From assembly GCA_028874215.1 (NCBI GenBank), contig JAPPLF010000111.1, positions 1 to 52,806 of the forward strand: a stretch of DNA of 52,806 bases, read 5' to 3'. The notes beneath the pieces are model-generated. The model searched no databases, was not told the origin of the DNA, and was given only the letters and a program-made list of their open reading frames with translations. A program made the position numbers and the translations under genes. This DNA comes from Acidobacteriota bacterium. GTDB lineage: Bacteria > Acidobacteriota > UBA6911 > RPQK01 > JAJDTT01. Below, one piece after another: positions 2,643 to 18,129 of the stretch (positions within the stretch are counted from its first letter, which is position 1; each line of letters begins with the position of its first letter).

Positions 2643-3989
2643 CTATCTGGCCACCCAGTTGTAGCCCTCGCCTCGGGCGATGAAGGGACCCCAGGGGCGC
2701 TTGTCCAGCACCTGTTTGGCGAGGCGCAGGAAGTTCCCGCCGACGATCTTTCGGATTTCGGCATCGCTGAGTCCGCGGCAAACCAGACCCCCCGTGAGGA
2801 AGGGCCAGTTGCTCCACGACATGGGCCAGGGTGGGTCGCTCGGCGTCAAGGTCAGGTTCGACGGGATGCCCACGTGGTCAATGCCGGCCACCTTAACGGC
2901 GTGTTCCAGATGGGGGAACCAGGCATTGAAGGAAAAATTGGCGTCCGGATCGGAAGAGTAGTCTGCGGCCATGATGCCCGCAACACACCCCCGCCGAGCC
3001 AAGGTGCGAAGATAGTCGTCGTCTTCGTTCTTGTAGTAGTCGTCGACCGCCCGGCAGGCCGTGCGGGCATTCAAGAGCGGTTCGCTGGAGGCCTCGACGG
3101 CATCGAGCCCCGAGCGGTGGCCACAGTGGGCCAGGTTGATGATCATTCCCAACTGGTTCATCCGGCGAACCACCCGCTTGCCGAGCCGGCTGAGGCCCTT
3201 ATCTCTTTCGCCTTCGAATTCGTCCGAGGAGGCCAGGCTGTTCTGTTCGTGAGATGTCAACTGGGAGACGCGGACCCCCAGGGCAAAGAAGAGATCCAGG
3301 GTCTGAAGCGGATCGGGAGTCATGGCAAACCAGTTGGCGCCATGGAGGTGCAGGAGGACGGCGACTTATTCGTCCCGCCGGGCTGCATCCAGGTCCTCCA
3401 CCCCCGAAACTCGCCGGGCGTGGGCCTTGATCTTGTCGTAAACGAACTTGGCCCGTGCCGTGTGCTGGAGGCCGGCGCGGAAGCTGGGTTCGTAGAAGTG
3501 CCCCACATCTTCCACCGCCAGGTCCATACCGGCCAGGCGATACCGGTTCCGGTAGTCCTCTCGCCATTGGGGATCGAAGGCCGATTCGAAGGCCTTCATG
3601 TCCCGCCACCGGTTGAGCACCCGTTGCTGGATCTCGTCCCGGTCCAGCCCCGACCGCTCCAGCTTGTTTCGGTAGCTCTCCAGCTCGCGTTTCAGACGGT
3701 CGCCCTTCCAGATGAAGAGAGGATCCGCCACATAGAGACAACCGCTGAGGTCAGCGACGTAGCTGCCGTAATGTAGCTCGAAACCCCGTTCCAGTTGACT
3801 CCGGGTGGGCTTCAACTCTTCCAGAACCGCATGCCGGCAGGCGTCCACCACCTTCCGAATCTCCGGCCGGAGCGTGACGGGACGGAAGTCCTCCGGAACC
3901 GGGTTTCTTCTCCGGGTCCAGACATGGGTCGGGTGTGCTGCTCCCGCCAGGGAGGCCCCTACGAATCCACGTCTTGAAAGCGGCTTCAT
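2643..3989 (-). pseudogene. M19 membrane-dipeptidase-like gene, broken copy
   Basis: This copy matches the intact gene at 4110-5456 over its whole length (449 codons) and in one frame, but codon 208 (AAG in the neighbour) is TAA here, at 3366-3368. Two further changes hit residues conserved in M19 peptidases: the neighbour's H309 (NAHTGCRA) is Arg here (NARTACRA), and D378 (IPSDL) is Asn here (IPSNL). The Tat-type leader (SRRGFVGASLAG) and the rest of the frame remain open, so inactivation looks fairly recent. The downstream half could in theory restart at ATG 3323, but it would lack the N-terminal half and two key residues. I read it as the decaying member of a tandem duplication. Confidence 0.85.
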
Positions 3990-4022
3990 TTTTTCTGTTC
4001 ACCTTCCGCGATGGTGTGGGGG

Positions 4023-4042
4023 CGGCGGTTTCCTAACCGCCG
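4023..4042 (-). repeat. Short hairpin repeat, copy 2
   Basis: Stem 4023-4030 pairs with 4035-4042 around a loop reading AGGA on the minus strand. It is the same sequence as copy 1 over 24 bases (4023-4046). It sits in the gap between the two M19 genes. Confidence 0.75.
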
Positions 4043-4072
4043 ATTCTTCGAAACTCCCGAAACACGGCGTAC

Positions 4073-4091
4073 GGGCGATTGGAAATCGCCC
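4073..4091 (+). repeat. Short hairpin repeat, copy 3 (different stem)
   Basis: GGGCGATT pairs with AATCGCCC around a GGA loop at 4081-4083, followed by CTCC. It lies 30 bases from copy 2 and has a different but fully paired stem. Confidence 0.75.
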
Positions 4092-4109
4092 CTCCATACA
4101 AGACCACAG

Positions 4110-5456
4110 CTATCTGGCCACCCAGTTGTATCCTTCGCCTCGGGCGATGAAGGGACCCCAGGGGCGCTTGTCCAGCACCTGTTTGGCGAGGCGCAGGAAG
4201 TTCCCGCCGATGAGCTTCCGGATTTCGGCATCGCTGAATCCGCGGCAAACCAGTCCCACCGTGTAGTAGGGCCAGTTGCTCCACGACATGGGCCGGGGTG
4301 GGTAGTCCGGCATGAAGGTCAGATCCGAGGGGATGGCCACGTGGTCGATACCCGCCACCTTGACGGCGTGCTCCAGGTGGGGCAACCAGGCGTTGAAGGA
4401 AAAACCGGAGTCCGGATCGGGCGACAGGTATCCCGCGTACATCCCCGCGACGCCCCCCTTCCGGGCCAGCGTACGAAGATAATCGTCGTCTTCGTTCTTG
4501 TAGTGGTCGTAGATGGCCCGGCAGCCCGTGTGGGCGTTGATGACCGGTTCGCTGGAGGCCTCGATGGCATCAAGCCCCGAGCGGTGCCCGCAGTGGGCCA
4601 GGTTGACCATGATTCCCAACTCGTTCATCCGGCGAACCACCCGCTTGCCAAGTGAACTGAGCCCTCGGTCTCTCTCACCATCGAAATCGTCGGATGAGGC
4701 CAGGCTGTTCTGCTCGTGATAGGTCAACTGGGAGGCCCGGACTCCCAGGGCGAAGAAGAGGTCCAGGGTCTGAATTGGATCGGGAGTCATGGCGAACCAG
4801 TTGGCGCCATGAAGGTGCAGGAGGATGGCGACCTTTTCGTCCTGCCGGGCTGCATCCAGGTCGTCCACTCCCGATACGCGCACGGCGTCGGCCTTGATCT
4901 TGTCGTAGACGAACCCGGCCCGTGCCGTGTGCTGGAGGCCGGCGCGGAAGCTGGGTTCACTGAAGTGCCCCACGTCCTCCACCGCCAGGTCGATGCCCGC
5001 CAGGCGATACAGGCTCCGGTAGTCCTCTCGCCATTGGGGGTCGAAGGCGGATTCAAAGGCCTTCATGTCGCGCCACCGGTTGACTACCCTCTGTTGGACA
5101 TCCTCCGGGTCCAGACCGTCCCTCTCCAGCTTGTTTCGGTAGCTTGCCAGTTCACCATTCAGACGGTCGCCCTTCCAGATAAAGAGAGGATCCGCCACAT
5201 AGAGACAGCCGCAGACGTCGGCGACGTAGCTGCTGTAATGCAGTTCGAAACCCCGTTCCAGTTGGCTCCGGGTGGGCTTCAACTCCTCCAGAGCCAAATG
5301 CCGGCAATCGTCGACCACCTTCCGGATCTCCGGCCGAAGCGTGACCGGACGGTAGTCCTCCGGAACCGGGTTGCTCCTCTGGGTCCAGACAGTCGTCGGG
5401 AGTGCTGTTCCTGCCAGGGAGGCCCCTACGAATCCACGCCTTGTGAGCTTGTTCAT
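4110..5456 (-). CDS. M19 membrane-dipeptidase-like protein, Tat-exported
   Basis: A 448-residue relative of renal/membrane dipeptidase (peptidase M19). It probably acts outside the cytoplasm, because it starts with a Tat-type leader (TRRGFVGASLAG, residues 5-16). Recognisable M19 features are H288 in NLAHCG, H309 in NAHTGC, and the late IDHVAIPSDL block with D378. I do not see the usual N-terminal HxD motif or a clear bridging Glu, so this is a divergent branch and metal binding may differ. ATG at 5456 is preferred over the longer frame to 5519, because AAAGGAG lies just upstream and the leader then begins at residue 1. It is duplicated downstream as a pseudogene (2643-3989). Confidence 0.75.
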   Translation of the reverse strand: MNKLTRRGFVGASLAGTALPTTVWTQRSNPVPEDYRPVTLRPEIRKVVDDCRHLALEELKPTRSQLERGFELHYSSYVADVCGCLYVADPLFIWKGDRLNGELASYRNKLERDGLDPEDVQQRVVNRWRDMKAFESAFDPQWREDYRSLYRLAGIDLAVEDVGHFSEPSFRAGLQHTARAGFVYDKIKADAVRVSGVDDLDAARQDEKVAILLHLHGANWFAMTPDPIQTLDLFFALGVRASQLTYHEQNSLASSDDFDGERDRGLSSLGKRVVRRMNELGIMVNLAHCGHRSGLDAIEASSEPVINAHTGCRAIYDHYKNEDDDYLRTLARKGGVAGMYAGYLSPDPDSGFSFNAWLPHLEHAVKVAGIDHVAIPSDLTFMPDYPPRPMSWSNWPYYTVGLVCRGFSDAEIRKLIGGNFLRLAKQVLDKRPWGPFIARGEGYNWVAR

Positions 5457-5579
5457 TTTTCCTGCGCTCCTTTTGGGATGGGGTGATCTCCGTTTGGTTT
5501 GACTTCTTCGGAGTTTCAACCAAGTTACTAGGAATCTCCTCCACCGGCCAATGACCGATCGTATAGCGACGCCGAAGAC

Positions 5580-5600
5580 GGGGGGACTAACAGTCCCCCC
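5580..5600 (+). repeat. Short hairpin repeat, copy 4
   Basis: GGGGGGACT (5580-5588) pairs perfectly with AGTCCCCCC (5592-5600) around a loop AAC, followed by TCC. It lies in the 171-base gap between the PQQ-like gene and the M19 gene. The loop departs from the GGA seen in other copies. Confidence 0.65.
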
Positions 5601-5607
5601 TCCAGTG

Positions 5608-5625
5608 GGCGGCAGGAAAACCGCC
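5608..5625 (+). repeat. Short hairpin repeat, copy 5
   Basis: GGCGG (5608-5612) pairs with CCGCC (5621-5625) around CAGGAAAA, followed by TCC. It is 8 bases after copy 4 and ends 3 bases before the stop of the PQQ-like gene. Confidence 0.6.
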
Positions 5626-5627
5626 TC

Positions 5628-6896
5628 CTATCGGTTGGAGGGTTTCTCGATCCGATACAGGTGAGTGTCGCTGCGAATCAGGAGCGATCGGCCGGCGATG
5701 GCCATGGAGGCCAGGGTTCGTCCGTCCAATTGGTTTTCGGCCAACTTGTCGAAACGCTGCCCGGGCCGAATGACCGTCGTCTTCCCGTCTTCGTCCAGAA
5801 GGAAGATCTTGCCGTCGGCAAAGGCGGGAGAGGCGGAGTAGTTGCCTCCCAGCCGTTCCCGCCAGTGCAGAGTCCCTTCCCTGGCATCCAGGCAGGTGAG
5901 GACTCCTCCGTCGCTGACGAAATAGATTTCATCCCCGACGATCAGAGGAGAGGGCGTGATGGGAACCCCGCGCTGCCACTTCCAGACCACGTGCGATTTG
6001 GTGACGTCTCCACGGCCGTCGGGCCGAACGGCATACAACTCGGGCCTGCCCAGCGCGGGATTGACCAGGTAGACCAGACCGTGGACGAAGAGGGGCCGGG
6101 GAACCTGGGAGAAACCGATGTACCGGATCCACCAGAGCATCTTTCCGGTCGTCATTTCGTAGGAGGCGGCCACGTTGCCACCGGTGCTGATGACCTGACG
6201 CATACCGGCGGCGTCGATGACCAGAGGCGTCGAATAGGCCATGTCGCCGTCCTCGCGCAAGGTCTTCCACCGCACCGTGCCGTCGTTCTTGTCCAACGCC
6301 GCGACGAACTGGGTATCGGTGCCGTCGCAACTGATCAGCAGCAGGTCATCCGCGATGGCCGGTGTCGACGCGGGTCCGTACTGCTCCACGTAGCGCAGGT
6401 TCCGGGTCTTCCAGAGAATCTTGCCCCGGGCGTCGAGGGCCGCCGTGCCGAAGTCGCCGAAGTGGACGTAGACCCGGTCCGCTTCCAGGATCGGCGTCGG
6501 AGACGCCGACGAGTTCTTGGTGTGCAGCGAGGGGGAACCTTCCAGCGCGATGACCTCGACGTCGTGCAGGAGACGGCCCGAATCGAAGTCCAGCCCCAGG
6601 GCGCGAAGCGAGTGGCGCGCCTGCGGTGAGTCCTCCTGGGAAATCCCGGTGGTCAGCCAGATCTTGCCGTCGCGCATGACGGGCGAGGACCAACCCTGCC
6701 CGGGAATGGGGACTTTCCAGGCGACGTTCCCGGCTTCGCTCCAGGTCAGGGGCAGCCCGACGGCGTCCGAGTGTCCCTGGGCGGTCGGTCCGCGAAACTC
6801 GGGCCAGTCCTGTGCCGCGAGCGGCGGCGCCACCAGGAGAGACGCCAGGAGGAATGTCAACGCCATGAATTGAATCGCAAAAACGGAGGTGATCAT
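5628..6896 (-). CDS. Exported PQQ-like beta-propeller protein
   Basis: A 422-residue protein with an N-terminal export signal ending near APPLAAQ (about residue 29), then WPEFRGP. That opening is typical of the PQQ-like (BamB-type) propeller proteins abundant in Acidobacteriota and Planctomycetota. Repeated blade motifs are visible (GKIWLTTG, GKILWKTR, GTVRWKTL, GTLHWRER). Such proteins are usually periplasmic or surface proteins and need not bind PQQ. ATG at 6896 keeps the full hydrophobic leader; ATG at 6866 is an alternative that still leaves a signal peptide. It is the eighth gene of the minus-strand chain, 93 bases after the lipoprotein gene. The function is not known beyond the fold. 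Confidence 0.8.
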   Translation of the reverse strand: MITSVFAIQFMALTFLLASLLVAPPLAAQDWPEFRGPTAQGHSDAVGLPLTWSEAGNVAWKVPIPGQGWSSPVMRDGKIWLTTGISQEDSPQARHSLRALGLDFDSGRLLHDVEVIALEGSPSLHTKNSSASPTPILEADRVYVHFGDFGTAALDARGKILWKTRNLRYVEQYGPASTPAIADDLLLISCDGTDTQFVAALDKNDGTVRWKTLREDGDMAYSTPLVIDAAGMRQVISTGGNVAASYEMTTGKMLWWIRYIGFSQVPRPLFVHGLVYLVNPALGRPELYAVRPDGRGDVTKSHVVWKWQRGVPITPSPLIVGDEIYFVSDGGVLTCLDAREGTLHWRERLGGNYSASPAFADGKIFLLDEDGKTTVIRPGQRFDKLAENQLDGRTLASMAIAGRSLLIRSDTHLYRIEKPSNR

Positions 6897-6989
6897 GCCT
6901 GTCCAGGACTGGGGGACCTCAGTTGGCCCACGCTCTCCTCCTCCTTCGGATGGAACCGAAACGAGTCCCGAATGGAGGAGAACCTTCCG

Positions 6990-8021
6990 TCAGGGAGACG
7001 CGAGAAACGCCAGATCGTCCATCTTCCAGACGTTGAGCTGGTGCGTGGCGACTCCCATGATGGAGATGAGGGCGCCGTCCTCCACCGACTTGGGTGAGGA
7101 ACTGAAGTAACCGGTGATGTCCAGGACGTCCATCACCTGGTCGTCCAGGGTCCAGTAGACGGTGTTGGCGTCGTCGGTCAGGTAGACCCCCCAGCGCCGG
7201 GGCCGCTCCAGCAAGTCGGCGATCTCTGCCGGGTCCCGATAAACCCGGGTGGCGAGCGCCATGCAGGGAACGGTCACGTAGGGACCACCCGTTGCGATGG
7301 CCGCCTCATGGGCGACCCTGAGCTCCTGGGGGGTCATGGTCTTGGCTTCTTCGGTCCCGAACTTGTCCCTCGGATACTTCTCGAAGTCATCGGGCCTGAG
7401 ACCGCGCACCAGGTAGACGAAGAGCCCGTCGTCCCGCAACAGGTCGAAATGGAGCTGCACCCCCCGATCCTCCTCCTCCTGGCCACCCACGAAACCGTGC
7501 CAACTGCCCAGCGTGATGCTCCACGCCTGGACCAGTTGTCCCTTCTCGTCCATTTCCTCGGGGTAGTCCTCGTGGCTGAACACGCCGACGGTCACCTCCG
7601 CGCCGTTGGTGCCGGCCAATCCGGGATTGAAGTACTTCCCGGTGGTGCCGAAACCGCCCAGGACGGCTTCGCCGGGACCGGGCGGGGGCGCGCGCTCAAC
7701 CTCGAGCAGCCAATGTCCGTCCCGGATTCGCGCCCGGGCCGTCGGCATGCGGGTCCACCGCTTCAGGTCGAATTGGTCCGGAGGACCATAAGCCTGGTTG
7801 AAATCGTCGCTGAACTGCACCGTCAACTTGGCCTTGGTGGCTTCGTGCTCCGCCTGCGTCACCAGGCTGGGAGCCGTGGTCTCCTCGGCTGCCGGCTCCT
7901 CAGCTGCCGGCTCCCCTGGGGGCGAACCACCACAGCCCGGACCGGCAATGGCCAAAGCCGCCGCTCCCAGAACACCCACCCACCATCGAGACACTCTCTT
8001 GCTCACGGTTTCCTTGCTCAT
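6990..8021 (-). CDS. Lipoprotein of unknown function, concanavalin-like
   Basis: A 343-residue predicted lipoprotein. Basic residues and a hydrophobic stretch (about 12-28) end in a lipobox-like IAGPGC, and an Ala/Glu/Pro-rich linker (about 31-50) follows. The rest is beta-rich, with FSDDFNQAYGPPDQFDLKRW early and YWTLDDQVMDVLDITGYF late, which resembles concanavalin-type sandwiches; no catalytic motif is recognisable. ATG at 8021 has GAGG 8 bases upstream. It follows the FG-GAP/UnbV gene by only 9 bases, so the two are probably co-transcribed. I do not recognise a named family with confidence. Confidence 0.7.
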   Translation of the reverse strand: MSKETVSKRVSRWWVGVLGAAALAIAGPGCGGSPPGEPAAEEPAAEETTAPSLVTQAEHEATKAKLTVQFSDDFNQAYGPPDQFDLKRWTRMPTARARIRDGHWLLEVERAPPPGPGEAVLGGFGTTGKYFNPGLAGTNGAEVTVGVFSHEDYPEEMDEKGQLVQAWSITLGSWHGFVGGQEEEDRGVQLHFDLLRDDGLFVYLVRGLRPDDFEKYPRDKFGTEEAKTMTPQELRVAHEAAIATGGPYVTVPCMALATRVYRDPAEIADLLERPRRWGVYLTDDANTVYWTLDDQVMDVLDITGYFSSSPKSVEDGALISIMGVATHQLNVWKMDDLAFLASP

Positions 8022-8030
8022 GGTTTCACC

Positions 8031-10022
8031 TCATTCGGAACCGGCGCTTGTCGCGTCCGGTTCCCTGATTTCCAATTGTTGGTTGGTCGGGATGGGACCC
8101 GAAACAACTTGGCGTTCCCCGGAGGGCCAGATCACCTCGATCCGGTCCACGGTATTCGAATTCCCCAGTCCGAAGTACAGGGGCAGCCGGCTCTGTGAGA
8201 GGTAACCCGATTTGCCATCGTGGACCCGAGTATAACTTCGGGTGCCGGTCTGCAGCGTCACCCGTGCGCCCAGACCGTCCCGGTTGCTTCGCTCACCCTG
8301 CAGCTTGACCTTCAGATAGCTGATCGGCTTTTTCTCGGCCAGATCGCTGACCAGCACCATCGGTTCGGAGTTGAACTCGTTGGTGACGATGTCCTGATCG
8401 CCGTCGCCATCCAAGTCGAATATCACCGATGAGCGGGACCCCAAGGCGGCCCAGACCACGAATCGCCCGCTCCGTTGCCGGCAACTTGAATGCGTTTTGT
8501 CCTCGCCGTCACAGTCGAGTTCGAACCAGGGCCGGGCCGTACGGTTTCCGCGCCTGGGCTCTACTCCCAGGATGAATTCGCTGTCCCGAAAGGTCTTTCC
8601 CCCGTCATTGAGCAGGACCGAATTGACCCCGTATCGGAATGGATAGTTCATGCTCGACGCGATGAAGGCGTCGATGTAGCCGTCGGCATTCAGATCTCCG
8701 GCGCTGAGGCCCCAGGGCCAGTAGTTCTCCGCGCCGACCTGATCGGAGATTTCCCGGAATCGCCCTTGACCCTGGTTGAGATAGAACGCATTCCCGTAGA
8801 TGCTCTGCTCCCGCGGAATGCCCAGGCGCGACGGAGTCCATTGCATGTTCGACTTGAGCTTCTCGAAGAGGGGAGGGATGCCTTCGCTCATGTCCGAATG
8901 CATATCGGTGAGAAAGATGTCCATGCGCCCGTCGTTGTCGAAATCGAAGACCTGGATCCCCATCGATCCCCAAGGGGTTTTGGGAAACAACTCGCGGCTC
9001 TTCTTGACGAACTTCCGGCCCTCCACGTTTTCGTAGTACTCATCGTTGCCCTGCATGTTCAGGACGTAGAGGTCAGGCCAACCGTCGCGGTTGACGTCGA
9101 TGGGATTGGCGTCGCCGCTCCAACCTTCATCGACAAGTCCCATTTTCCCGGACACCTCCTCGAACCGGCAATCGCCCAGGTTCCTGTAGAGCAGGCTCTT
9201 CTCCGTACGCTCCGGCCTCAGGTGGCCCCCGAAGGCATCGTCCACCCCGACGTAGTAACCTCCCCTGCCGACCTGCTCGGTCGTGTAAACGCCCACATTG
9301 GTCACGAGCAGGTCCAGGAGGCCGTCTCGATCGTAGTCGAAGAACACGCTTCCGGATGAGTGCCCCGTATAGGCGAGGCCCGATTCCCCGGTCACGTCCC
9401 GGAACCGGCCCTTGCCCCTGTTTTCGAACAGGACGTTCCCCTGGCGCACGGTGGTGACAAAGAGGTCGGCATCGCCGTCGTTGTCCACGTCGGCGAAGGA
9501 GGCCGCCACACTGATCCTGTCGGGCACGCCGACTCCAGCCACTTCGGTCAGGTCGCGGAACCGGCCGCGGCCCAGGTTCTTCCAGAGCTGATTGGCTCCG
9601 ACCTGGTTGAGAAAATAGATGTCCTCAAGCCCGTCTCCGTCCACGTCCGCGGCGGAAATTCCGTTCCCGTGGTCGTAGTGCACCGGTTTCCAGTGCTTCC
9701 CGGAATCATCCACGATCCGGTGAAGGAACTCGATTCCACTCTCTTCGACGCGGTCCGAGAACCGAAAATCGTGAAATACACCGAGGGTGTCCTTGCCTTC
9801 AATCTGCAGTTCCCCTCGGATTTCCATCCATTCGGGCGCCAGCACCGTGTCCGGAATCGGCAACACTTGCACCGCCGCCCGGGAGCCGTCCTCCTGCCCG
9901 GCGGCTTCCCGGTTCCCCCCGAAAAGGGCCAGAGCCAGGATCCCCGTAGTCAACCAGACCCGCCGCGGGACCAAGAAGAACGGCCCTGGAATCGCCTTTC
10001 CGTCCAGATTCGCTGTCGCCAT
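8031..10022 (-). CDS. Large FG-GAP/VCBS propeller with ASPIC/UnbV domain
   Basis: A 663-residue exported protein. After an N-terminal hydrophobic leader (about 22-42) come repeated Ca-binding-like blades with D-x-D-x-D-G loops: DVDGDGLED, DYDRDGLLD, DVNRDGWPD, DFDNDGRMD, DLDGDGDQD. The C-terminal ASPIC/UnbV domain starts near GARVTLQTG and ends near VIWPSGERQVV. The architecture matches CRTAC1-like proteins but is about 75 residues longer than its three neighbours and lacks their FVHFNG opening. Such proteins are predicted to be extracellular; no biochemical role is established for the bacterial versions. The 90-base upstream gap holds a 12-bp palindrome (10091-10102). Confidence 0.85.
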   Translation of the reverse strand: MATANLDGKAIPGPFFLVPRRVWLTTGILALALFGGNREAAGQEDGSRAAVQVLPIPDTVLAPEWMEIRGELQIEGKDTLGVFHDFRFSDRVEESGIEFLHRIVDDSGKHWKPVHYDHGNGISAADVDGDGLEDIYFLNQVGANQLWKNLGRGRFRDLTEVAGVGVPDRISVAASFADVDNDGDADLFVTTVRQGNVLFENRGKGRFRDVTGESGLAYTGHSSGSVFFDYDRDGLLDLLVTNVGVYTTEQVGRGGYYVGVDDAFGGHLRPERTEKSLLYRNLGDCRFEEVSGKMGLVDEGWSGDANPIDVNRDGWPDLYVLNMQGNDEYYENVEGRKFVKKSRELFPKTPWGSMGIQVFDFDNDGRMDIFLTDMHSDMSEGIPPLFEKLKSNMQWTPSRLGIPREQSIYGNAFYLNQGQGRFREISDQVGAENYWPWGLSAGDLNADGYIDAFIASSMNYPFRYGVNSVLLNDGGKTFRDSEFILGVEPRRGNRTARPWFELDCDGEDKTHSSCRQRSGRFVVWAALGSRSSVIFDLDGDGDQDIVTNEFNSEPMVLVSDLAEKKPISYLKVKLQGERSNRDGLGARVTLQTGTRSYTRVHDGKSGYLSQSRLPLYFGLGNSNTVDRIEVIWPSGERQVVSGPIPTNQQLEIREPDATSAGSE

Positions 10023-10090
10023 GATTCGTCGCTTCCGACTACCGGATCATGCGTCCCAGTATACTGCCAACACTCTTTCTCGTTAGACGG

Positions 10091-10102
10091 CACAGGCCTG
10101 TG
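10091..10102. promoter_or_regulatory. 12-bp perfect palindrome between two FG-GAP genes
   Basis: CACAGGCCTGTG reads the same on both strands, in the 90-base gap before the gene at 8031-10022. A TATACT hexamer on the minus strand lies between it and that gene, so an operator or internal promoter is conceivable, but no good -35 is seen. Confidence 0.2.
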
Positions 10103-10112
10103 ACTCGGCCCA

Positions 10113-11846
10113 TCACTCGGAACCGCAAGGCTGTCCTGAACTACGGCGTACCGTGATATAGCGGTTGGACTCTCCGCCAGGCCAGACCTCGCATCGGCCG
10201 TCCGGCCACTCGACGGCCACACCCTTCACTTCCACAGCCGTGCCGAGACCGAAAAGGATCCGTCCGTCATGGGCGCTGAGATAGCTGCCGTCGGTTCGGC
10301 AGCGGCGCAGGAGGGGCCGGACTCCCTCCCGCAGCACGGCAACTCCCGCCTGTTCGATCCCGGCGTAGGGGGCATTCTCGCCTTCCAGGCGCACGCCGAG
10401 CCAGCGCCGGCTCGATGACGCCTGGTTGAGCAGGAGACGCGCCGGTCCGTTGTTGTTGGAGACCACGACATCCACGTCGCCATCGTCGTCCAGGTCCCCG
10501 AAGGCCGCTCCACGGCTCACTTCGACCAGATCCAGTCCCGGTCCCCCGGCCGAGGCGAACACTTCCCGGTACGCGCCCCCGCCGTGGTTCCGAAAGAGCT
10601 GGTTCTTCTGGGCGTAGGGATAGACCGAATCGGAGGGCTGGTTCTCATCCACGGTCACCGCCCCGTTGGCCACGAACAGGTCCAGCCAGCCGTCGTGATC
10701 GTAGTCGAACCAGAGGGTGCCGAAACCAGTGTAGGGGACACTTGCCTGGGCCAGCGCGAACCGGGAAGTGGCGTCGGTGAACCCCGTGGCCAGATCGCTC
10801 AGGTAGAGGGTATTCGTCTCTCGCTGGTTGTGGGTGACGAAGAGGTCCTCGTCGCCGTCGCCGTCAAAATCGGCGGCCGTCACCCCCATCCCCGCCTCCG
10901 CCACGCCGTCGGCGTTGTAGGCCACGCCGGACATCAGCCCGAAATCCTCAAAGCCCTCCTCGCCGCCGTTGATCCACAGTTGATTGGGTGTCCCGTCATT
11001 GGCGACGTAGATATCCAACCTGCGGTCCCGGTTGGCGTCCACCGCAATGACGCCCAACCCGGCCCCGAAGGCGGCGCCCAGCCCGGCCTCCTCGCTGACG
11101 TCTTCGAACCTGCCACCCCCCAGGTTCCGAAACAGCCGGTCCGGCACCGGCTCGTAGACGCTGGGCGAACAGTAGTCCCGGCGGGGCTCGCCGCAGACTT
11201 TGTTTCCCCGGACGGTAAAGGAGACGTAGTTGGCGACGTAGAGGTCCAGACGGCCGTCCCCGTCGTAGTCCAGAAAAGAGGCGCTGGTGCTGAACCTGGG
11301 ATCGTCCACGCCGGCGTCTTGCGTCACATCCCGAAAAGTCCCGTCGCCTCGGTTCCGATACAACACGTTGGGTCCGAAATTGGTCAGGTAAAGGTCCAGA
11401 TCGCCGTCGCCGTCGTAGTCCCCGACGGCCAGACCCATCCCGTACCCCTCGTGGCCCACGCCGGAGCCGGCGGTGGCATCGACGAACCCGAGCCGGCCCG
11501 TTTCCTTCAACTGATTGCGGAAGAGGCGGTTGCGCGGCGGGGCGGGTCCTGGGAACGGAAACATGGATTGGGAGAGGGCCTTGGCCGGGTCCAGCATTGC
11601 TCCCTGGATCAGGTAGACGTCCAGGTCGCCGTCGCCGTCGTAGTCCAGCAGTCCGACCCCGGAGCCCATGATCTCGGGCAGATGGAACTCTCCGGTAGCT
11701 CCGATGAAATGATGGAAGTCCAGACCCAATTCTCGGGCTGCTTCCCGGAATGCGGGGTCCCCTTCTGCCTCCAGTCGTCCGCCGGCCAAGACTACGGCCA
11801 AAGTCAGCACGCATGCCCGCGGCAAACGGCCCATGGAGTCTCTCAT
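10113..11846 (-). CDS. CRTAC1-like FG-GAP/UnbV protein (third copy)
   Basis: A 577-residue exported propeller. It starts with a leader (LPRACVLTLAVVLAGG), then LDFHHFIGATGEFHLPEIMG, a variant of the opening block of the two copies upstream. Acidic loops such as DYDGDGDLD and DFDGDGDED recur. A conserved Cys pair appears in VCGEPRRDYCSP, and an ASPIC/UnbV domain closes the protein (SYLSAHDGRILFGLG). ATG at 11846 starts one base after the stop of the TPR gene; GTG at 11867 would overlap that gene, and ATG at 11834 is also possible. It is clearly diverged from the copies at 13311 and 15080, so the duplication giving rise to it is older. Confidence 0.85.
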   Translation of the reverse strand: MRDSMGRLPRACVLTLAVVLAGGRLEAEGDPAFREAARELGLDFHHFIGATGEFHLPEIMGSGVGLLDYDGDGDLDVYLIQGAMLDPAKALSQSMFPFPGPAPPRNRLFRNQLKETGRLGFVDATAGSGVGHEGYGMGLAVGDYDGDGDLDLYLTNFGPNVLYRNRGDGTFRDVTQDAGVDDPRFSTSASFLDYDGDGRLDLYVANYVSFTVRGNKVCGEPRRDYCSPSVYEPVPDRLFRNLGGGRFEDVSEEAGLGAAFGAGLGVIAVDANRDRRLDIYVANDGTPNQLWINGGEEGFEDFGLMSGVAYNADGVAEAGMGVTAADFDGDGDEDLFVTHNQRETNTLYLSDLATGFTDATSRFALAQASVPYTGFGTLWFDYDHDGWLDLFVANGAVTVDENQPSDSVYPYAQKNQLFRNHGGGAYREVFASAGGPGLDLVEVSRGAAFGDLDDDGDVDVVVSNNNGPARLLLNQASSSRRWLGVRLEGENAPYAGIEQAGVAVLREGVRPLLRRCRTDGSYLSAHDGRILFGLGTAVEVKGVAVEWPDGRCEVWPGGESNRYITVRRSSGQPCGSE

Positions 11847-11847
11847 C

Positions 11848-13314
11848 CTACTCGGTGCCGAAAGCACTCATCGCCTCCAGCCGGGTCAGGAGTGCCTCGA
11901 TTTCCCGCAACAGGGACTGCTGGTTGGACGCAGCGGCCATTTGTTTCGCCTTCAGCGCGGCCTCCTTGGCTTTCTGAAACTGTTTCAACTCGATCCGCAC
12001 CAGGGCCAAGGTGTGCAGATATACGGGCGTGCCCTCGTTTTCGGGTTCCAGCGTCTTCTCCAGGTGCCGGACCGCTTCGGCGGGCTTCCCCTGGCTCATG
12101 AGCAGGCGGGCCAGGTTGAAGTGGGGGAGATGGAAATTGGGCTCGTACTGGATGGCCAGACGGAAATGCCGCGCCGCTTCGTCGGCCTGGCCCTTCTGCG
12201 CCATGATATACCCCAGGTTGTTGTGGCTCAGGGCGTGGTAGGGATTGATCTCCAGAGCCTTTCTCAGCGCCTCCTCAGCCTCCCCCATACGGCCGGACAT
12301 GCCCAGGAACATGCCGAAGTTGTAGTGAGTCTTGTACATGCCCGGGTCGATGGCCACCGCCTTGCGGTAGTGTTCCTCCACCTTGACCGGGTCACGCAGC
12401 ACCACGTACAGGGAGGAGAGATTCCCGTGGACCACCGAGTGATCCGGGTCGATCTCCAGCGCCTTCAGAAAAGCCGTTTCCGCGCCTCGGAAATCTCCCT
12501 GGTCGCGAAGGGCGATCCCCTGCTCCAAATACCGGGTGGCTCCGGAGGCGAGTGACTGGATCGCGTCCAGCAACGGGTCCCGGCGGGGCGGCTCCCCGGT
12601 CGAGTGTTGCCGGAACCGGACGAGATGCTCCCGCATCTTGGCGCCTTCGCCCAGATCCCGATAAGCCAGACCCAGTGCGTAGTGGCTGGCGCCATATTCC
12701 GGGAACAGGTCGCACGCCTTTCGGAACTGTTCGACCGCTCGCGGCAGATCGCCTTCCCCGGCGTGGACCCGACCCAGGCCATAGTGAGCCACGGCCGAGC
12801 CGGGGTGGTCCCGGATGATCCGTTGGTACGCCTCGCGGCTCGCATCCGGCTGTCCCAGCTGCCGGAGGACGTCCGCCAGCGCCAGGCGGGCCGGAACGTC
12901 GTTCGGTTTGAGCGCCACGGCCCGGCGGAACGCGGACGCCGCTTCGTTCAGCTTTCCCAGCGGGACGCGGACGACTCCCAGGTAGTAGGCCCAGGGGTAG
13001 TGGCCCGGGTCCAGCAGGTGTGACCGGTGATAGAGCGGCTCCGCAGGCTTGTAGCGTTCATGGGCATGGAGGATCATGCCCAGTCTGCCATTGGCCTCCG
13101 CGGACTTGGGCTCCGAGCGCAGCCGGTTCACGGCCGCCTCGATCTGCTCCCACGCCGTGGCGTCGAATTCATCCCTCAGCGGGGCCAGATCCGCCACGGG
13201 AGGAAGGTCTTCCGCCGGGGCCGGGACCCCGACAGAGACCGCGAAGCCCAGGCTCAGAGCAAGGCCAACGGCGCTCGTGCTCTGGTTTCGCCGTTCTCCC
13301 CTCTGCCAGTTCAT
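11848..13314 (-). CDS. Exported TPR-repeat protein
   Basis: A 488-residue protein with an N-terminal signal (about 15-34, ending near VPAPAED) followed by about ten tetratricopeptide repeats, for example AFRRAVALKPND, AFLKALEIDPDH, ALRKALEINPYH and HFRLAIQYEPNF. TPR solenoids hold partner proteins, so this is a natural scaffold for the propellers encoded on both sides. Its ATG overlaps the TGA of the upstream CRTAC1-like gene by four bases (13311-13314), and its stop is one base from the next start, which indicates translational coupling. Partner identity is inference from position only. Confidence 0.85.
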   Translation of the reverse strand: MNWQRGERRNQSTSAVGLALSLGFAVSVGVPAPAEDLPPVADLAPLRDEFDATAWEQIEAAVNRLRSEPKSAEANGRLGMILHAHERYKPAEPLYHRSHLLDPGHYPWAYYLGVVRVPLGKLNEAASAFRRAVALKPNDVPARLALADVLRQLGQPDASREAYQRIIRDHPGSAVAHYGLGRVHAGEGDLPRAVEQFRKACDLFPEYGASHYALGLAYRDLGEGAKMREHLVRFRQHSTGEPPRRDPLLDAIQSLASGATRYLEQGIALRDQGDFRGAETAFLKALEIDPDHSVVHGNLSSLYVVLRDPVKVEEHYRKAVAIDPGMYKTHYNFGMFLGMSGRMGEAEEALRKALEINPYHALSHNNLGYIMAQKGQADEAARHFRLAIQYEPNFHLPHFNLARLLMSQGKPAEAVRHLEKTLEPENEGTPVYLHTLALVRIELKQFQKAKEAALKAKQMAAASNQQSLLREIEALLTRLEAMSAFGTE

Positions 13315-15083
13315 CGGCCCGCCACCGTTGTACCACTACCCCGATAGAGAATCGCGTATTGGTCGACGGACAGGGCGCTCCACTCTTCCACCATTCCGTC
13401 CGTCCATTCGGCGCGGACCTTCAACACCCGCGTCTCGTCTCCAAGTCCGAAGAGCAGCCTGGAATCGTTGGCGGAGGCGTAACTCCCGTCGGTCCGGACG
13501 CGCCGCCACAAGGTCTGTCCTCCGGGGAGGAAAACACCGACTCGAGTCCCCAGCAGGTCCCTCTTGAGCCGCCGGTCCATCAACCGCAGCCCCAGCCAGC
13601 GGCGCTGCTGGCCCATGCGGTTGATCAACAGCCGCACGGGACCGTTGTTGTTGATCACCACCACATCCGTGTCGCCGTCGTTGTCCACGTCCCCGAAGGC
13701 TCCACCCCGGCTTACCTCCGAAAGCTCGAAAACAGGGCCGGCTCCACCCGTCACGTCCTCGAACCGTCTCCCCTCCAAATTGCGGAAGAGTTGATTGGGC
13801 TGATGAAGCGGATAAGGATCGTTTTGCTTGGCCAGGACGTCAAGCGTGTCGACGTGTCCGTTCACTGCAAGAACGTCCAGCCAGCCATCGTTGTCATAAT
13901 CCAGAAAGGCCGTGCCGAATCCGGTGTAGGGGACACTGGGGGGAGCGAGACGGGTTCCCGAGGACTCGTCCTCGAACCAGCCGCTCCCGTCGTTCCGGTA
14001 GAGGGTGTTGGTCTCGTTCAGGAGGTGCGTCATGAACAGATCTTCGTCACCGTCGTTGTCGAAGTCCGCCGCGTCGACCCCCATGCTCGACTCCGCCTTC
14101 CCATCCTTGTTGAAGGCGCAGCCGGCCAGCAAGGCCTCGTTGCTGAAGGTCCCGTCCTTCTGATTCATCCAAAGATGATTGGGCCGCTGGTCGTTGGCCA
14201 CGTAGAGGTCGATCCAGCCGTCCTGGTTGAAATCGGCCGTGACCACGCCCAGGGAACCATTGTATTGCCGGGCGATCTGGGATGGGGCCGACACGTCTTC
14301 GAAAGTCCCGTCGCCCCGGTTGCGAAACAACTGGTCCGGGACCGGCTCGTAACTGAGGGGCCCGCAGTAGTCGACGCGCCCCGTGATCCCGAAACAGTCC
14401 TTGGTGTAGGAGAAGCTGAAATTGACGTAGTTGCCCACGAACAGATCGAGCCAACCGTCGCGGTCGTAGTCCAGGAACGCCGCGCTGACGCTCCAACGGG
14501 GCGCGGCCTCTTCGGGCAGCACCGCCTCGCGGAAGCTGCCGTCCCCGTTATTCAGAAACAGTTGGTTCCGCCCGAAGTTGGTGACATAGAGGTCGATCCA
14601 GCCATCGTTGTCGACGTCGGCCACGGCCGCCCCCATGCCGTACCCGGTGGCCTCGATCCCGCTCTGCCCCGTAACGTCGGTAAAGCGCAGCACGCGGCTC
14701 CCGTCCGCACGGACCTCCAGGTCGTTTCGATACAGGCGGTCTCTCGGGGGCAGGGGAACCTGCGGCGGAAAGAGGGCGTCCTGCAGAGCTTTTTCCGGCC
14801 CCAGCATGTTGCCCTGGACGATATAGAGGTCCAGGTCTCCGTCGTTGTCGTAGTCGAACAGGGCGCCGCCCGATCCCACCACCTCACAGAAGTATTTCTC
14901 CCCCGACATCCCGTTGAAGTGAACGAAATCGATCCCGACCGCATGAGTTTCGTCGGTAAAGACGCCGGAGGCGGAACTCACGACACCTGACATGAAGTAC
15001 AGGCACGGAATCAGAAGACCCGCGACGGCAACGAGCGTCCGCCGGTCACCCCAGGCTCGGCGTTGCCCCCTTCGCCGGTTCAT
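13311..15083 (-). CDS. CRTAC1-like FG-GAP/UnbV protein (second copy)
   Basis: A 590-residue exported protein with a hydrophobic leader (about 16-40), then IDFVHFNGMSGEKYFCEVVG, propeller blades with DYDNDGDLD, DVDNDGWID, DFNQDGWID and DYDNDGWLD loops, the pair CFGITGRVDYCGP, and a C-terminal ASPIC/UnbV domain (LWRRVRTDGSYASANDSRLL). It is nearly the same as the gene just upstream over the mature region, but the signal peptides differ. Both ends overlap neighbours by four bases (ATGA at 15080-15083 and at 13311-13314). Probably secreted or surface-bound and calcium-binding; the bacterial function is not established. Confidence 0.87.
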   Translation of the reverse strand: MNRRRGQRRAWGDRRTLVAVAGLLIPCLYFMSGVVSSASGVFTDETHAVGIDFVHFNGMSGEKYFCEVVGSGGALFDYDNDGDLDLYIVQGNMLGPEKALQDALFPPQVPLPPRDRLYRNDLEVRADGSRVLRFTDVTGQSGIEATGYGMGAAVADVDNDGWIDLYVTNFGRNQLFLNNGDGSFREAVLPEEAAPRWSVSAAFLDYDRDGWLDLFVGNYVNFSFSYTKDCFGITGRVDYCGPLSYEPVPDQLFRNRGDGTFEDVSAPSQIARQYNGSLGVVTADFNQDGWIDLYVANDQRPNHLWMNQKDGTFSNEALLAGCAFNKDGKAESSMGVDAADFDNDGDEDLFMTHLLNETNTLYRNDGSGWFEDESSGTRLAPPSVPYTGFGTAFLDYDNDGWLDVLAVNGHVDTLDVLAKQNDPYPLHQPNQLFRNLEGRRFEDVTGGAGPVFELSEVSRGGAFGDVDNDGDTDVVVINNNGPVRLLINRMGQQRRWLGLRLMDRRLKRDLLGTRVGVFLPGGQTLWRRVRTDGSYASANDSRLLFGLGDETRVLKVRAEWTDGMVEEWSALSVDQYAILYRGSGTTVAGR

Positions 15084-16840
15084 GGTTTCGTCACCGCCGT
15101 TCCGCTACCCCGATAGAGAACCGTATATTGGTTTACCGGCAGGCTGTCCCACTCCTCCTTTGTGCCGTCCGTCCATTCGGCGCGGACCTTCAACACCCGC
15201 GTCTCGTTTCCGAGTCCGAAGAGCAGCCTGGGATCGTTGGAAGAGGCGTAGCTCCCATCGGTCCGGACGCGCCGCCACAACGTCCGGCCTCCGGCGAGGA
15301 ACACGCCGACTCGAGTCCCCAGCAGGTCCCTCTTGAGCCGCCGGTCCATCAGCCGCAGTCCCAGCCAATGCCGCTGCTGTCCCGTCTGGTTGATCAACAG
15401 CCGCGCGCGCCCGTTGTTGTTGGCCACCAGGACGTCCGTGTCGCCGTCGTTGTCCACATCCCCGAAGGCGCCGCCACGGCTCACCTCCGACAGCTCAAAC
15501 ACCGGCCCGGCCCCGCCGGTCACGTCCTCGAACGTCTCTCCGTCCACGTTGCGGAAGAGTTGATTGGGTTGATGAAGCGGGTACGGGTCATTGTCCTTGG
15601 CCAGGGCTTCCAAGGTGGAGACATGGCCGTTCAGAGCCAGGACGTCCAGCCACCCGTCGTTGTCGTAGTCCAGGAAGGCCGTTCCGAACCCAGTGAAGGG
15701 GACGCTGGGGGGCGCGAGCCGGGTGCCCGAGGACTGGTCCTCGAACCAGCCGGTGCCGTCGTTCCGGTAGAGGGTGTTGGTCTCGTTCAGAAGGTGCGTC
15801 ATGAACAGGTCTTCGTCGCCGTCGTTGTCGAAGTCCGCCGCATCCACGCCCATGCTCGACTCCGCCTTCCCGTCCTTGTTGAAGGCGCAACCGGCCAGCA
15901 ACGCTTCGTTTCTGAAGGTTCCGTTTCCCTGGTTCATCCAGAGATGGTTGGGGCGCTGGTCGTTGGCCACGTAGAGGTCGATCCAACCGTCCAGGTTGAA
16001 GTCGGCCGTGACCACGCCCAGGGAACCGTTGTATTGACGGGCGATCTGGGACGCGGCCGATGCGTCCTCAAAGCTCCCGTCTCCCCGGTTGCGGAACAAC
16101 TGGTCCGGGACCGGCTCATAGCTGGTTGGCCCGCAGTAGTCGACGCGCCCGGTCGAACCGAAACAGTTCTTGGTGTGAGAGAAGCTGAAGTCGACGTAGT
16201 TGCCGACGAAGAGATCGAGCCAACCGTCGCGGTCGTAGTCCAGGAACGCCGCGCTGACGCTCCAACGGGTCGCGGCCTTTTCCGGCAGCGCGGCCTCGCG
16301 GAAGCTGCCGTCCCCGTTGTTGCGAAAGAGTTGATTCCTCCCGAAGTTGGTCACGAAGAGATCGATCCAGCCGTCGTTGTCGACGTCGGCCGCCGCCGCT
16401 CCCATGCCGTATCCGGCGGACTCGATGCCGCTCTGTTGCGTGACGTCGGTGAAGCGCAGGTTCCGGCTCCCGTCCGCACGGATCTCCAGGTCGTTTCGAT
16501 ACAGGCGGTCTCTCAGCGGCAACGGGACCCGCGGTGGAAAGAGGGCGTCCTTGAGGGCCTTTCCCGGCCCCAGCATGTTGCCCTGGACGATATAGAGGTC
16601 CAGATCGCCGTCGTTGTCGTAATCGAACAGGGCGCCGCCGGACCCCACCATCTCGCAGTAGTACTTCTCTCCCGACATCCCGTTGAAGTGGACGAAATCG
16701 ATTCCGGCCGCCTGAGCCTGGTCGCTGAAGAGGACCGTGCCGGAGTCCGATCCGGCCAGAGGTGACAGGGCCGCTAGCAGGAAAAGGGCCGCGAGGAGCC
16801 CGCGCCAACGAAGGGAGGTGTATCGAAGACCAGCACTCAC
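15080..16840 (-). CDS. CRTAC1-like FG-GAP/UnbV protein (first copy)
   Basis: A 586-residue exported protein, the tandem twin of 13311-15083. The leader (GLLAALFLLAALSPLAG) is followed by IDFVHFNGMSGEKYYCEMVG, blades with acidic loops (DYDNDGDLD, DVDNDGWID, DFNLDGWID), CFGSTGRVDYCGP, and an ASPIC/UnbV tail (LWRRVRTDGSYASSNDPRLL). The start is GTG at 16840, and its first four bases overlap the TGA of the VapB-like gene. Bacterial members are thought to be extracellular; their role is unproven. The close match to the next gene suggests recent duplication or gene conversion. Confidence 0.87.
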   Translation of the reverse strand: MSAGLRYTSLRWRGLLAALFLLAALSPLAGSDSGTVLFSDQAQAAGIDFVHFNGMSGEKYYCEMVGSGGALFDYDNDGDLDLYIVQGNMLGPGKALKDALFPPRVPLPLRDRLYRNDLEIRADGSRNLRFTDVTQQSGIESAGYGMGAAAADVDNDGWIDLFVTNFGRNQLFRNNGDGSFREAALPEKAATRWSVSAAFLDYDRDGWLDLFVGNYVDFSFSHTKNCFGSTGRVDYCGPTSYEPVPDQLFRNRGDGSFEDASAASQIARQYNGSLGVVTADFNLDGWIDLYVANDQRPNHLWMNQGNGTFRNEALLAGCAFNKDGKAESSMGVDAADFDNDGDEDLFMTHLLNETNTLYRNDGTGWFEDQSSGTRLAPPSVPFTGFGTAFLDYDNDGWLDVLALNGHVSTLEALAKDNDPYPLHQPNQLFRNVDGETFEDVTGGAGPVFELSEVSRGGAFGDVDNDGDTDVLVANNNGRARLLINQTGQQRHWLGLRLMDRRLKRDLLGTRVGVFLAGGRTLWRRVRTDGSYASSNDPRLLFGLGNETRVLKVRAEWTDGTKEEWDSLPVNQYTVLYRGSGTAVTKP

Positions 16841-17076
16841 GCCTCATCCATCTTTTGGTAGAGCGCTTCGCGGTCGGCGATGCCGACCCGGAGCCCGCCG
16901 CTTTTCCAGGTGGGCAACGGTACCAGGGGTTCCGGTCCATCGTCGATTCGCGTACTCCCCCCCAAGACACGGAGGAGTCCCGCCTCAACGAGAGCAGACA
17001 TGGTGGTGCCGCGCCGGGCCGCTTCTTCCCGCAGGCGCTGCATCACCGTATCATCGATGTTGAGGGTCGTCTTCAT
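16837..17076 (-). CDS. Orphan VapB-like ribbon-helix-helix antitoxin
   Basis: A 79-residue protein. Residues 1-35 (MKTTLNIDDTVMQRLREEAA and the following helix) look like the DNA-binding ribbon-helix-helix half of type II antitoxins. The tail (LPTWKSGGLRVGIADREALY) resembles the toxin-wrapping segment of VapB-type proteins. ATG at 17076 matches the family start; ATG at 17088 would add four residues. The gene expected next, a VapC PIN-domain toxin, is absent: its stop overlaps the GTG of a CRTAC1-like gene by four bases. It may be a solo regulator of the downstream operon or a relic of a lost toxin-antitoxin pair. Confidence 0.7.
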   Translation of the reverse strand: MKTTLNIDDTVMQRLREEAARRGTTMSALVEAGLLRVLGGSTRIDDGPEPLVPLPTWKSGGLRVGIADREALYQKMDEA

Positions 17077-17148
17077 GAGGAAAAACATACCCGCTGAATC
17101 TCGGAAGCGTCAACCGAAACGGACCGCGTCTCATGCTATGATGCGCCC

Positions 17149-18129
17149 ATGAGCCAAAGACTGAAGGTGCTGTTTCTCCCCTTACCCGGTTTGTTCGAGC
17201 GCTGGGGGTCCGAGCTCGTCGACGCCGTGACGAAGAATCACGACCTGCGCATTGCCGACTACGATCAGCCCCTGGCCCCGCAGTTCGAAGGCATCGACGC
17301 CGTCATCGATCATGGCGGATCGGTGGGAACCCGGGAGATGGTCGACCTGGCGGCGGCGGGCAAGGTCCAGCATTGGCAGATCCTTGGAACGGGGTTCGAC
17401 CACTTCGACCTGGAATACTGGAAGTCGAAGGGAATGCCGACCTCCAATTGCCCGGGAGCCTTCAGCGCCGTGGCCCTGGCCGACTGCGCCATGATGTTCA
17501 TCCTGATGCTGGCCCGCAGGTACCACGATTCGAAGGAGGTCCTCGACAGCGGCAAACTCTACAGGCCGATGGGCGCCGAAATGGAGGGTTGGAAGCTGGG
17601 CATTCTCGGCTTGGGGGCCAGCGGTATCGAGTTGGCGAAGCGCGCCCCGGGTTTCGGGATGAAGACTCTCGCCATCGACATCCGCGACGTCGGACCCGAT
17701 GAGGTGAGCGAGCTGGGACTGGAGTTCGCCGGGAAGCCGTCCGACATGGACGACGTCATCGCCCAATCGGACGTCGTCTCCCTGCATCTGCATCTCAACC
17801 GGGAGACCCGCCACATCATCAACGAGCGCCGGCTGAAGCTGATGAAGTCGTCCGCTTTCCTGGTCAACGTCTCCCGCGGAGAGCTGGTGGACGAGGCGGC
17901 CCTGGAGCAGGCCCTGGTGGAAGGCTGGATCGGCGGCGCCGGAATCGACGTTTTCAGCCAGGAACCGCCTGATCTGTCCGATGCCATTTTCCGATTGCCG
18001 AACGCCGTGACGACGCCTCACATCGCCGGGGTCACCGACGGCACCGCGCGCAAGCGGGCGGCGTGCGCCGCCGAGAACCTGGACCGGATCGCCGCGGGAC
18101 TGGAGCCGCTGTACCGGATCGACCAGTAA
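17149..18129 (+). CDS. D-2-hydroxyacid dehydrogenase family protein
   Basis: A 326-residue NAD(P)-dependent cytoplasmic dehydrogenase of the phosphoglycerate/glyoxylate reductase superfamily. The dinucleotide motif GLGASG is at 154-159. The catalytic set is complete: R243 in VSRGELVDE, E272 in FSQEP, and H291 in TPHIAG. Length is normal for the family. The substrate cannot be assigned; hydroxypyruvate, glyoxylate and other 2-oxoacids are possible. It is transcribed away from the minus-strand propeller operon across a gap of about 70 bases, so a divergent promoter region lies at 17077-17148. Confidence 0.88.
   Translation: MSQRLKVLFLPLPGLFERWGSELVDAVTKNHDLRIADYDQPLAPQFEGIDAVIDHGGSVGTREMVDLAAAGKVQHWQILGTGFDHFDLEYWKSKGMPTSNCPGAFSAVALADCAMMFILMLARRYHDSKEVLDSGKLYRPMGAEMEGWKLGILGLGASGIELAKRAPGFGMKTLAIDIRDVGPDEVSELGLEFAGKPSDMDDVIAQSDVVSLHLHLNRETRHIINERRLKLMKSSAFLVNVSRGELVDEAALEQALVEGWIGGAGIDVFSQEPPDLSDAIFRLPNAVTTPHIAGVTDGTARKRAACAAENLDRIAAGLEPLYRIDQ

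What the first reader, a model, noticed from the sequence alone, without database searches (positions are those of the whole stretch)
6990..17076. Coupled operon of an antitoxin-like regulator, four FG-GAP/UnbV propellers, a TPR scaffold and a lipoprotein
Genes from 17076 to 10113 are joined by GTGA, ATGA and ATGA overlaps plus a 1-base gap. Such tight coupling suggests fixed stoichiometry, so the exported propellers and TPR protein may form one complex with the lipoprotein as membrane anchor. CRTAC1-like proteins have no established bacterial function, so this may be an undescribed surface assembly.
Basis: partly seen in the sequence, partly recalled or inferred. Interest (0 to 1): 0.6.

Follow-up and report, generated by a model that had tools for sequence, protein, structure and literature searches.

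The report
Exported CRTAC1-propeller and TPR gene module
An uncultured Acidobacteriota bacterium carries an operon of four exported calcium-loop propeller proteins (relatives of animal CRTAC1) built around a TPR helper protein; the propeller-TPR pairing recurs across several phyla and looks like a real, uncharacterised cell-envelope system, whereas the 'antitoxin regulator' at its front is only the leftover of a deleted toxin gene.

Summary
The operon is real, and its order P1-P2-TPR-P3-P4-LIPO is conserved in three congeners as far as contigs reach. Congeners G001 and G002 have a complete PIN-domain VapC between it and P1; the window and G003 share an identical 505-bp net deletion that removed it, and the GTGA overlap is the scar. 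(ii) The '1-base gap' is not conserved, and overlaps are common here (23 of 214 other pairs), so stoichiometry does not follow. (iii) The lipoprotein is genus-restricted with a non-canonical lipobox, so a general anchor is unsupported. What holds is a broader unit. P1 is a full-length structural match to CRTAC1 (Z 41.2). UnbV propellers and TPR genes are neighbours throughout this genome (25 of 61 TPR genes within 3 kb of one of 46 UnbV hits; 2.6 expected) and in other phyla. Neighbours' divergences correlate, and natural fusions occur in both domain orders. Best reading: an exported TPR adaptor carries propellers that bind extracellular ligands. Physical complex and ligand are inferred, not shown. 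I found no description of this module in the papers searched.

The parts
16837..17076 (-). RHH/VapB-like antitoxin, orphaned remnant of vapBC
   Evidence: FitA-like RHH E 1.6e-4, below Pfam cut-off; followed by PIN VapC in G001/G002; dN/dS raised in comparisons involving G003
16820..16836 (-). vapC remnant (first 17 nt) and deletion junction
   Evidence: alignment with G001/G002; 505-bp net deletion shared with G003
15080..16840 (-). P1, FG-GAP/UnbV_ASPIC propeller (CRTAC1-like) with signal-like N-terminus
   Evidence: Pfam; AlphaFold pLDDT 93.7; 9etn CRTAC1 Z 41.2
13311..15083 (-). P2, tandem paralogue of P1
   Evidence: Pfam; 84-86% identical to P1
11848..13314 (-). TPR protein with N-terminal hydrophobic (Sec-like) segment
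   Evidence: Pfam TPR families to E 4.6e-52; close homologues elsewhere adjacent to UnbV genes
10113..11846 (-). P3, FG-GAP/UnbV propeller, usual partner type of this TPR
   Evidence: Pfam
8031..10022 (-). P4, divergent FG-GAP/UnbV propeller
   Evidence: Pfam UnbV E 3.3e-18
6990..8021 (-). LIPO, genus-restricted putative lipoprotein with acidic tether
   Evidence: invariant Cys30, four orthologues only; no Pfam match; model failed (pLDDT 33)
5628..6896 (-). PQQ_2/BamB-like propeller, syntenic, probably separate unit
   Evidence: Pfam; conserved order
4110..5519 (-). M19 dipeptidase, syntenic, probably separate unit
   Evidence: Pfam
17084..17113 (-). only sigma-70-like site in 3900-17300, in front of RHH
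   Evidence: 1 found, 1.7 expected by chance, so weak

Best explanation
This is one copy of a recurrent exported module in which a TPR protein acts as adaptor for CRTAC1-type (FG-GAP/UnbV) propellers. SHOWN: gene order, domains, P1 predicted fold, recurrence of the UnbV-TPR pairing, correlated divergence, natural fusions. INFERRED: (1) Sec export of all members; (2) the TPR solenoid binds one or more propellers outside the cytoplasm; (3) six or seven Ca-type DxDxDG loops stabilise each propeller, whose face binds a glycan or protein ligand; (4) the duplicated propellers P1-P4 give multivalency or several specificities; (5) LIPO is a genus-specific addition, possibly tethering to a membrane. 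The front antitoxin is the residue of a broken vapBC locus and has no required role.
For: Gene order P1-P2-TPR-P3-P4-LIPO-PQQ-M19 in G002, and in G001/G003 as far as contigs reach. P1 model pLDDT 93.7, matching murine CRTAC1 along its length: Z 41.2, 457 residues, 2.3 A, next best Z 30.8. Genome-wide 25/61 TPR_16 genes within 3 kb of a UnbV gene versus 2.6 expected, p about 7e-19. In 79 named loci outside G002 plus G002 itself, TPR frequency is 27% at distance 1 versus 2-8% further out. All close homologues of this TPR (E<1e-50) outside the genus lie beside a UnbV gene, six of them directly upstream of a P3-type gene. Propeller-TPR-propeller trios in several phyla (domains of three checked). 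Distance correlation r 0.48-0.59. Fusions TPR-FGGAP-UnbV in own genome and FGGAP-UnbV-TPR in a Latescibacterota contig. Hydrophobic signal-like N-termini on all P, TPR and LIPO (heuristic); Cys226/Cys236 pair in 47/75 homologues.
Against: About two thirds of own-genome UnbV genes have no same-strand TPR neighbour (31 of 48), so the TPR is not obligatory. Pair distance correlation can come from shared species and paralogue history. The export call is a home-made heuristic that also flags 47% of other genes in these loci. The binomial test ignores operon clustering.
Confidence: 0.42

Rival explanations
1. Co-regulation without a complex: propellers and TPR protein are co-expressed envelope proteins in one pathway but act separately (for example TPR as periplasmic chaperone or export factor).
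For: Most UnbV genes have no TPR neighbour; tight spacing is common in this genome.
Against: Fusions in both domain orders and correlated divergence favour direct contact.
Confidence: 0.3
2. Nutrient-capture module working with TonB/Oar-type outer-membrane receptors, propellers acting like SusD-type surface binders.
For: OMP_b-brl_4 genes mildly enriched near UnbV genes (13/42 within 8 kb, 4.1 expected) and GWxTD genes 8/18 within 5 kb (1.2 expected); FG-GAP lectins among fold matches.
Against: No OMP_b-brl_4 gene on this contig; enrichment at 3 kb is not significant.
Confidence: 0.18
3. One reading: a fixed-stoichiometry surface complex anchored by the lipoprotein and controlled by the RHH regulator.
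For: ATGA overlaps conserved for P1/P2 and P2/TPR, and tight P4/LIPO spacing.
Against: RHH is a vapBC deletion remnant; LIPO absent outside the genus; overlaps not distinctive.
Confidence: 0.07

Closest known systems
CRTAC1 / ASPIC (cartilage acidic protein 1; PDB 9etn) and bacterial UnbV_ASPIC family PF07593
   Same: FG-GAP propeller plus UnbV_ASPIC domain; P1 aligns over residues 34-586 at Z 41.2, 2.3 A
   Different: No EGF-like C-terminal domain found by Pfam; encoded in multi-propeller operons with TPR; 22% identity over the structural alignment
FG-GAP lectins (Psathyrella velutina lectin) and integrin alpha propellers
   Same: FG-GAP-type propeller; Foldseek matches
   Different: Lower coverage; UnbV region not matched; ligand residues not compared
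VapBC toxin-antitoxin
   Same: RHH at 17076-16837; complete VapB-VapC in G001/G002
   Different: Toxin deleted in window and G003; remaining 17 nt now lie in P1's 5' end
CRTAC1-type gene beside hydrazine-synthase-like subunits in anammox-related taxa (PMC12758564)
   Same: FG-GAP/CRTAC1 gene inside a conserved gene cluster
   Different: Different partners; no TPR mentioned in the passage read

Membership tests
CRTAC1/UnbV_ASPIC | multiple FG-GAP repeats plus C-terminal UnbV_ASPIC domain | tested here: met
   P1-P4 all above Pfam cut-offs
CRTAC1/UnbV_ASPIC | whole-length fold of CRTAC1 | tested here: met
   P1 only (predicted model): Z 41.2, 457 aligned, 2.3 A
CRTAC1/UnbV_ASPIC | calcium-binding EGF-like C-terminal domain (animal CRTAC1, PMC10477339) | tested here: not met
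   Pfam finds none; a feature of the animal proteins, not of PF07593
TPR protein | tandem TPR repeats | tested here: met
VapBC toxin-antitoxin | antitoxin with adjacent PIN toxin | tested here: not met
   absent in window and G003, present in G001/G002; not relocated intact in G000 (best 37% identity)
Bacterial lipoprotein (LIPO) | canonical lipobox [LVI][ASTVI][GAS]C | tested here: not met
   AGPGC/AGLGC, although Cys30 is invariant and followed by an acidic tether
Bacterial lipoprotein (LIPO) | lipid modification and membrane location | not testable with these tools
   needs labelling or fractionation
TonB/SusCD-like uptake locus | outer-membrane receptor gene in the locus | tested here: not met
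   no OMP_b-brl_4 hit on contig C111; other receptor families not searched genome-wide
FG-GAP lectin | glycan-binding residues at blade interfaces | not tested
   only fold similarity seen

The most novel reading that the evidence does not exclude
The UnbV-TPR pairing is an undescribed, widespread and lineage-expanded extracytoplasmic recognition system (46 UnbV hits in this genome), in which interchangeable CRTAC1-type propellers dock on a TPR adaptor to capture diverse ligands, giving the bacterial CRTAC1 family its first functional setting.
Probability: 0.25. Interest if true: 0.7.

Novelty: new variant of a known kind. Interest (0 to 1): 0.48.

Why it matters
Bacterial CRTAC1/UnbV proteins are abundant in some Acidobacteriota and related genomes; I found no function for them in the papers searched. 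A conserved TPR partner, with natural fusions, gives a concrete and testable protein pair. The vapC deletion is a clean example of how an 'antitoxin-regulated operon' can be an accident of decay, a caution for operon-based annotation.

Tried and rejected
Antitoxin as operon regulator: rejected after congeners showed complete vapBC with a net 505-bp deletion in window and G003. LIPO structure: model unusable (pLDDT 33), so no fold search; a ConA-like look of its sequence is only an impression. Phage or defence origin: no PHROG match for P1, LIPO or RHH; no PADLOC match for P1, LIPO or VapC, and only weak matches (best E 1.3e-6, TPR-containing models) for the TPR protein. Internal promoters: one sigma-70-like site, not above chance. 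Literature: no paper found linking UnbV/CRTAC1 with TPR operons; subscription papers are not held. No lectin or enzyme active site was established.

Full report
OBSERVATION. On the minus strand the window carries RHH 17076-16837, P1 16840-15080, P2 15083-13311, TPR 13314-11848, P3 11846-10113, P4 10022-8031, LIPO 8021-6990, then PQQ 6896-5628 and M19 5519-4110. All four propellers have FG-GAP and UnbV_ASPIC domains above Pfam cut-offs; TPR is unambiguous; LIPO has no Pfam match. Junctions: GTGA, ATGA and ATGA as stated. ATGA at P1/P2 is kept in G001-G003 and at P2/TPR in G001 and G002; the 1-base TPR/P3 gap is not conserved and depends on the start chosen; P4/LIPO is also tight.

CONSERVATION. 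G002 carries the full order RHH...P1-P2-TPR-P3-P4-LIPO-PQQ-M19 at 82-91% protein identity; G001 and G003 agree as far as their contigs reach (LIPO and P3 of G003 share contig C531). The G002 contig is a public uncultured Acidobacteriota MAG record, so the phylum is Acidobacteriota.

THE ANTITOXIN IS A SCAR. In G001 and G002 a 144-aa PIN protein (VapC, E about 1e-11) lies between RHH and P1. In the window and G003 the distance between fixed flanks is 86 bp instead of 591 bp, an identical 505-bp net deletion. The first 17 nt of vapC survive at 16836-16820, out of frame inside the new 5' end of P1, and P1 now starts at the GTG overlapping the antitoxin stop. Two genomes share the junction, so it is inherited rather than an assembly error. 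Antitoxin dN/dS is about 0.13 between the two genomes with VapC and 0.35-0.41 in comparisons with G003, consistent with relaxed constraint; the window copy itself is less changed. No intact copy of this VapC lies elsewhere in G000 (best 37%).

OVERLAPS. In the sampled loci of this genome 23 of 214 other same-strand neighbours overlap and 66 lie within 30 bp; UnbV-TPR pairs give 5 and 8 of 18. Overlap alone is therefore weak evidence for stoichiometry.

WHAT IS UNUSUAL. The genome holds 46 UnbV hits. TPR_16 genes lie within 3 kb of one in 25 of 61 cases against 2.6 expected, GWxTD genes within 5 kb in 8 of 18 against 1.2, and OMP_b-brl_4 genes within 8 kb in 13 of 42 against 4.1. The expectation assumes uniform placement, so p-values are rough. 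In 80 named loci (G002 and 79 others) TPR frequency falls from 27% at distance 1 to 2-8% beyond. Propeller-TPR-propeller trios occur in Holophagales, Planctomycetota, Gemmatimonadota and Latescibacterota contigs; domains in three trios were checked by Pfam, where some flanking propellers show FG-GAP but no significant UnbV domain. Every close homologue of this TPR (E<1e-50) outside the genus sits beside a UnbV gene, six of them directly upstream of a P3-type gene. Distances of paired genes correlate (r 0.48, 0.59, and 0.52 within the genome; permutation p 2e-4), though shared ancestry contributes. Fusions: TPR-FGGAP-UnbV of 1166 and 816 aa in this genome and FGGAP-UnbV-TPR of 874 aa in a Latescibacterota contig.

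STRUCTURE. P1 folds with pLDDT 93.7. Foldseek and VIA-align put murine CRTAC1 first (TM 0.69/0.74; Z 41.2, 457 residues, 2.3 A), well above other propellers. P1, P2 and P4 have seven DxDxDG-like loops and P3 six. A Cys pair (226/236 in P1) is kept in 47 of 75 homologues, compatible with an oxidising compartment.

LIPO. Only the four congeners have it among 396 Acidobacteriota genomes, apart from a weak 64-residue hit. Cys30 is invariant and followed by a Pro/Ala/Glu tether, but the lipobox is non-canonical.

MECHANISM. I commit to an exported TPR adaptor with propellers as ligand-binding heads. Export, contact, calcium binding and ligand are inferences. The main rival is co-expression without contact.

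Noticed in passing
window 2643-3989 (-): A second M19 dipeptidase paralogue, 89% identical to G002's tandem copy, is interrupted by an in-frame TAA at 3366-3368.
   Followed up: partly
window 10055-10070 (-): GGCAGTATACTGGG with a perfect 10-bp palindrome (CAGTATACTG) lies in the P3/P4 gap and is conserved in G001 and G002; its 10-bp core GCAGTATACT occurs once in the window with none expected. Possible operator or promoter element.
   Followed up: partly
G000 genome: 46 UnbV_ASPIC hits in one 5.7-Mb genome, while many relatives have no match to P1 (33 of 60 match): patchy, lineage-specific expansion.
   Followed up: partly
G000 genome: GWxTD-domain genes are enriched near UnbV genes (8 of 18 within 5 kb); no paper on GWxTD was found.
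   Followed up: partly
window 13311-16840 (-): P1 and P2 are 84-86% identical tandem paralogues present in all congeners: old duplication or gene conversion.
   Followed up: no
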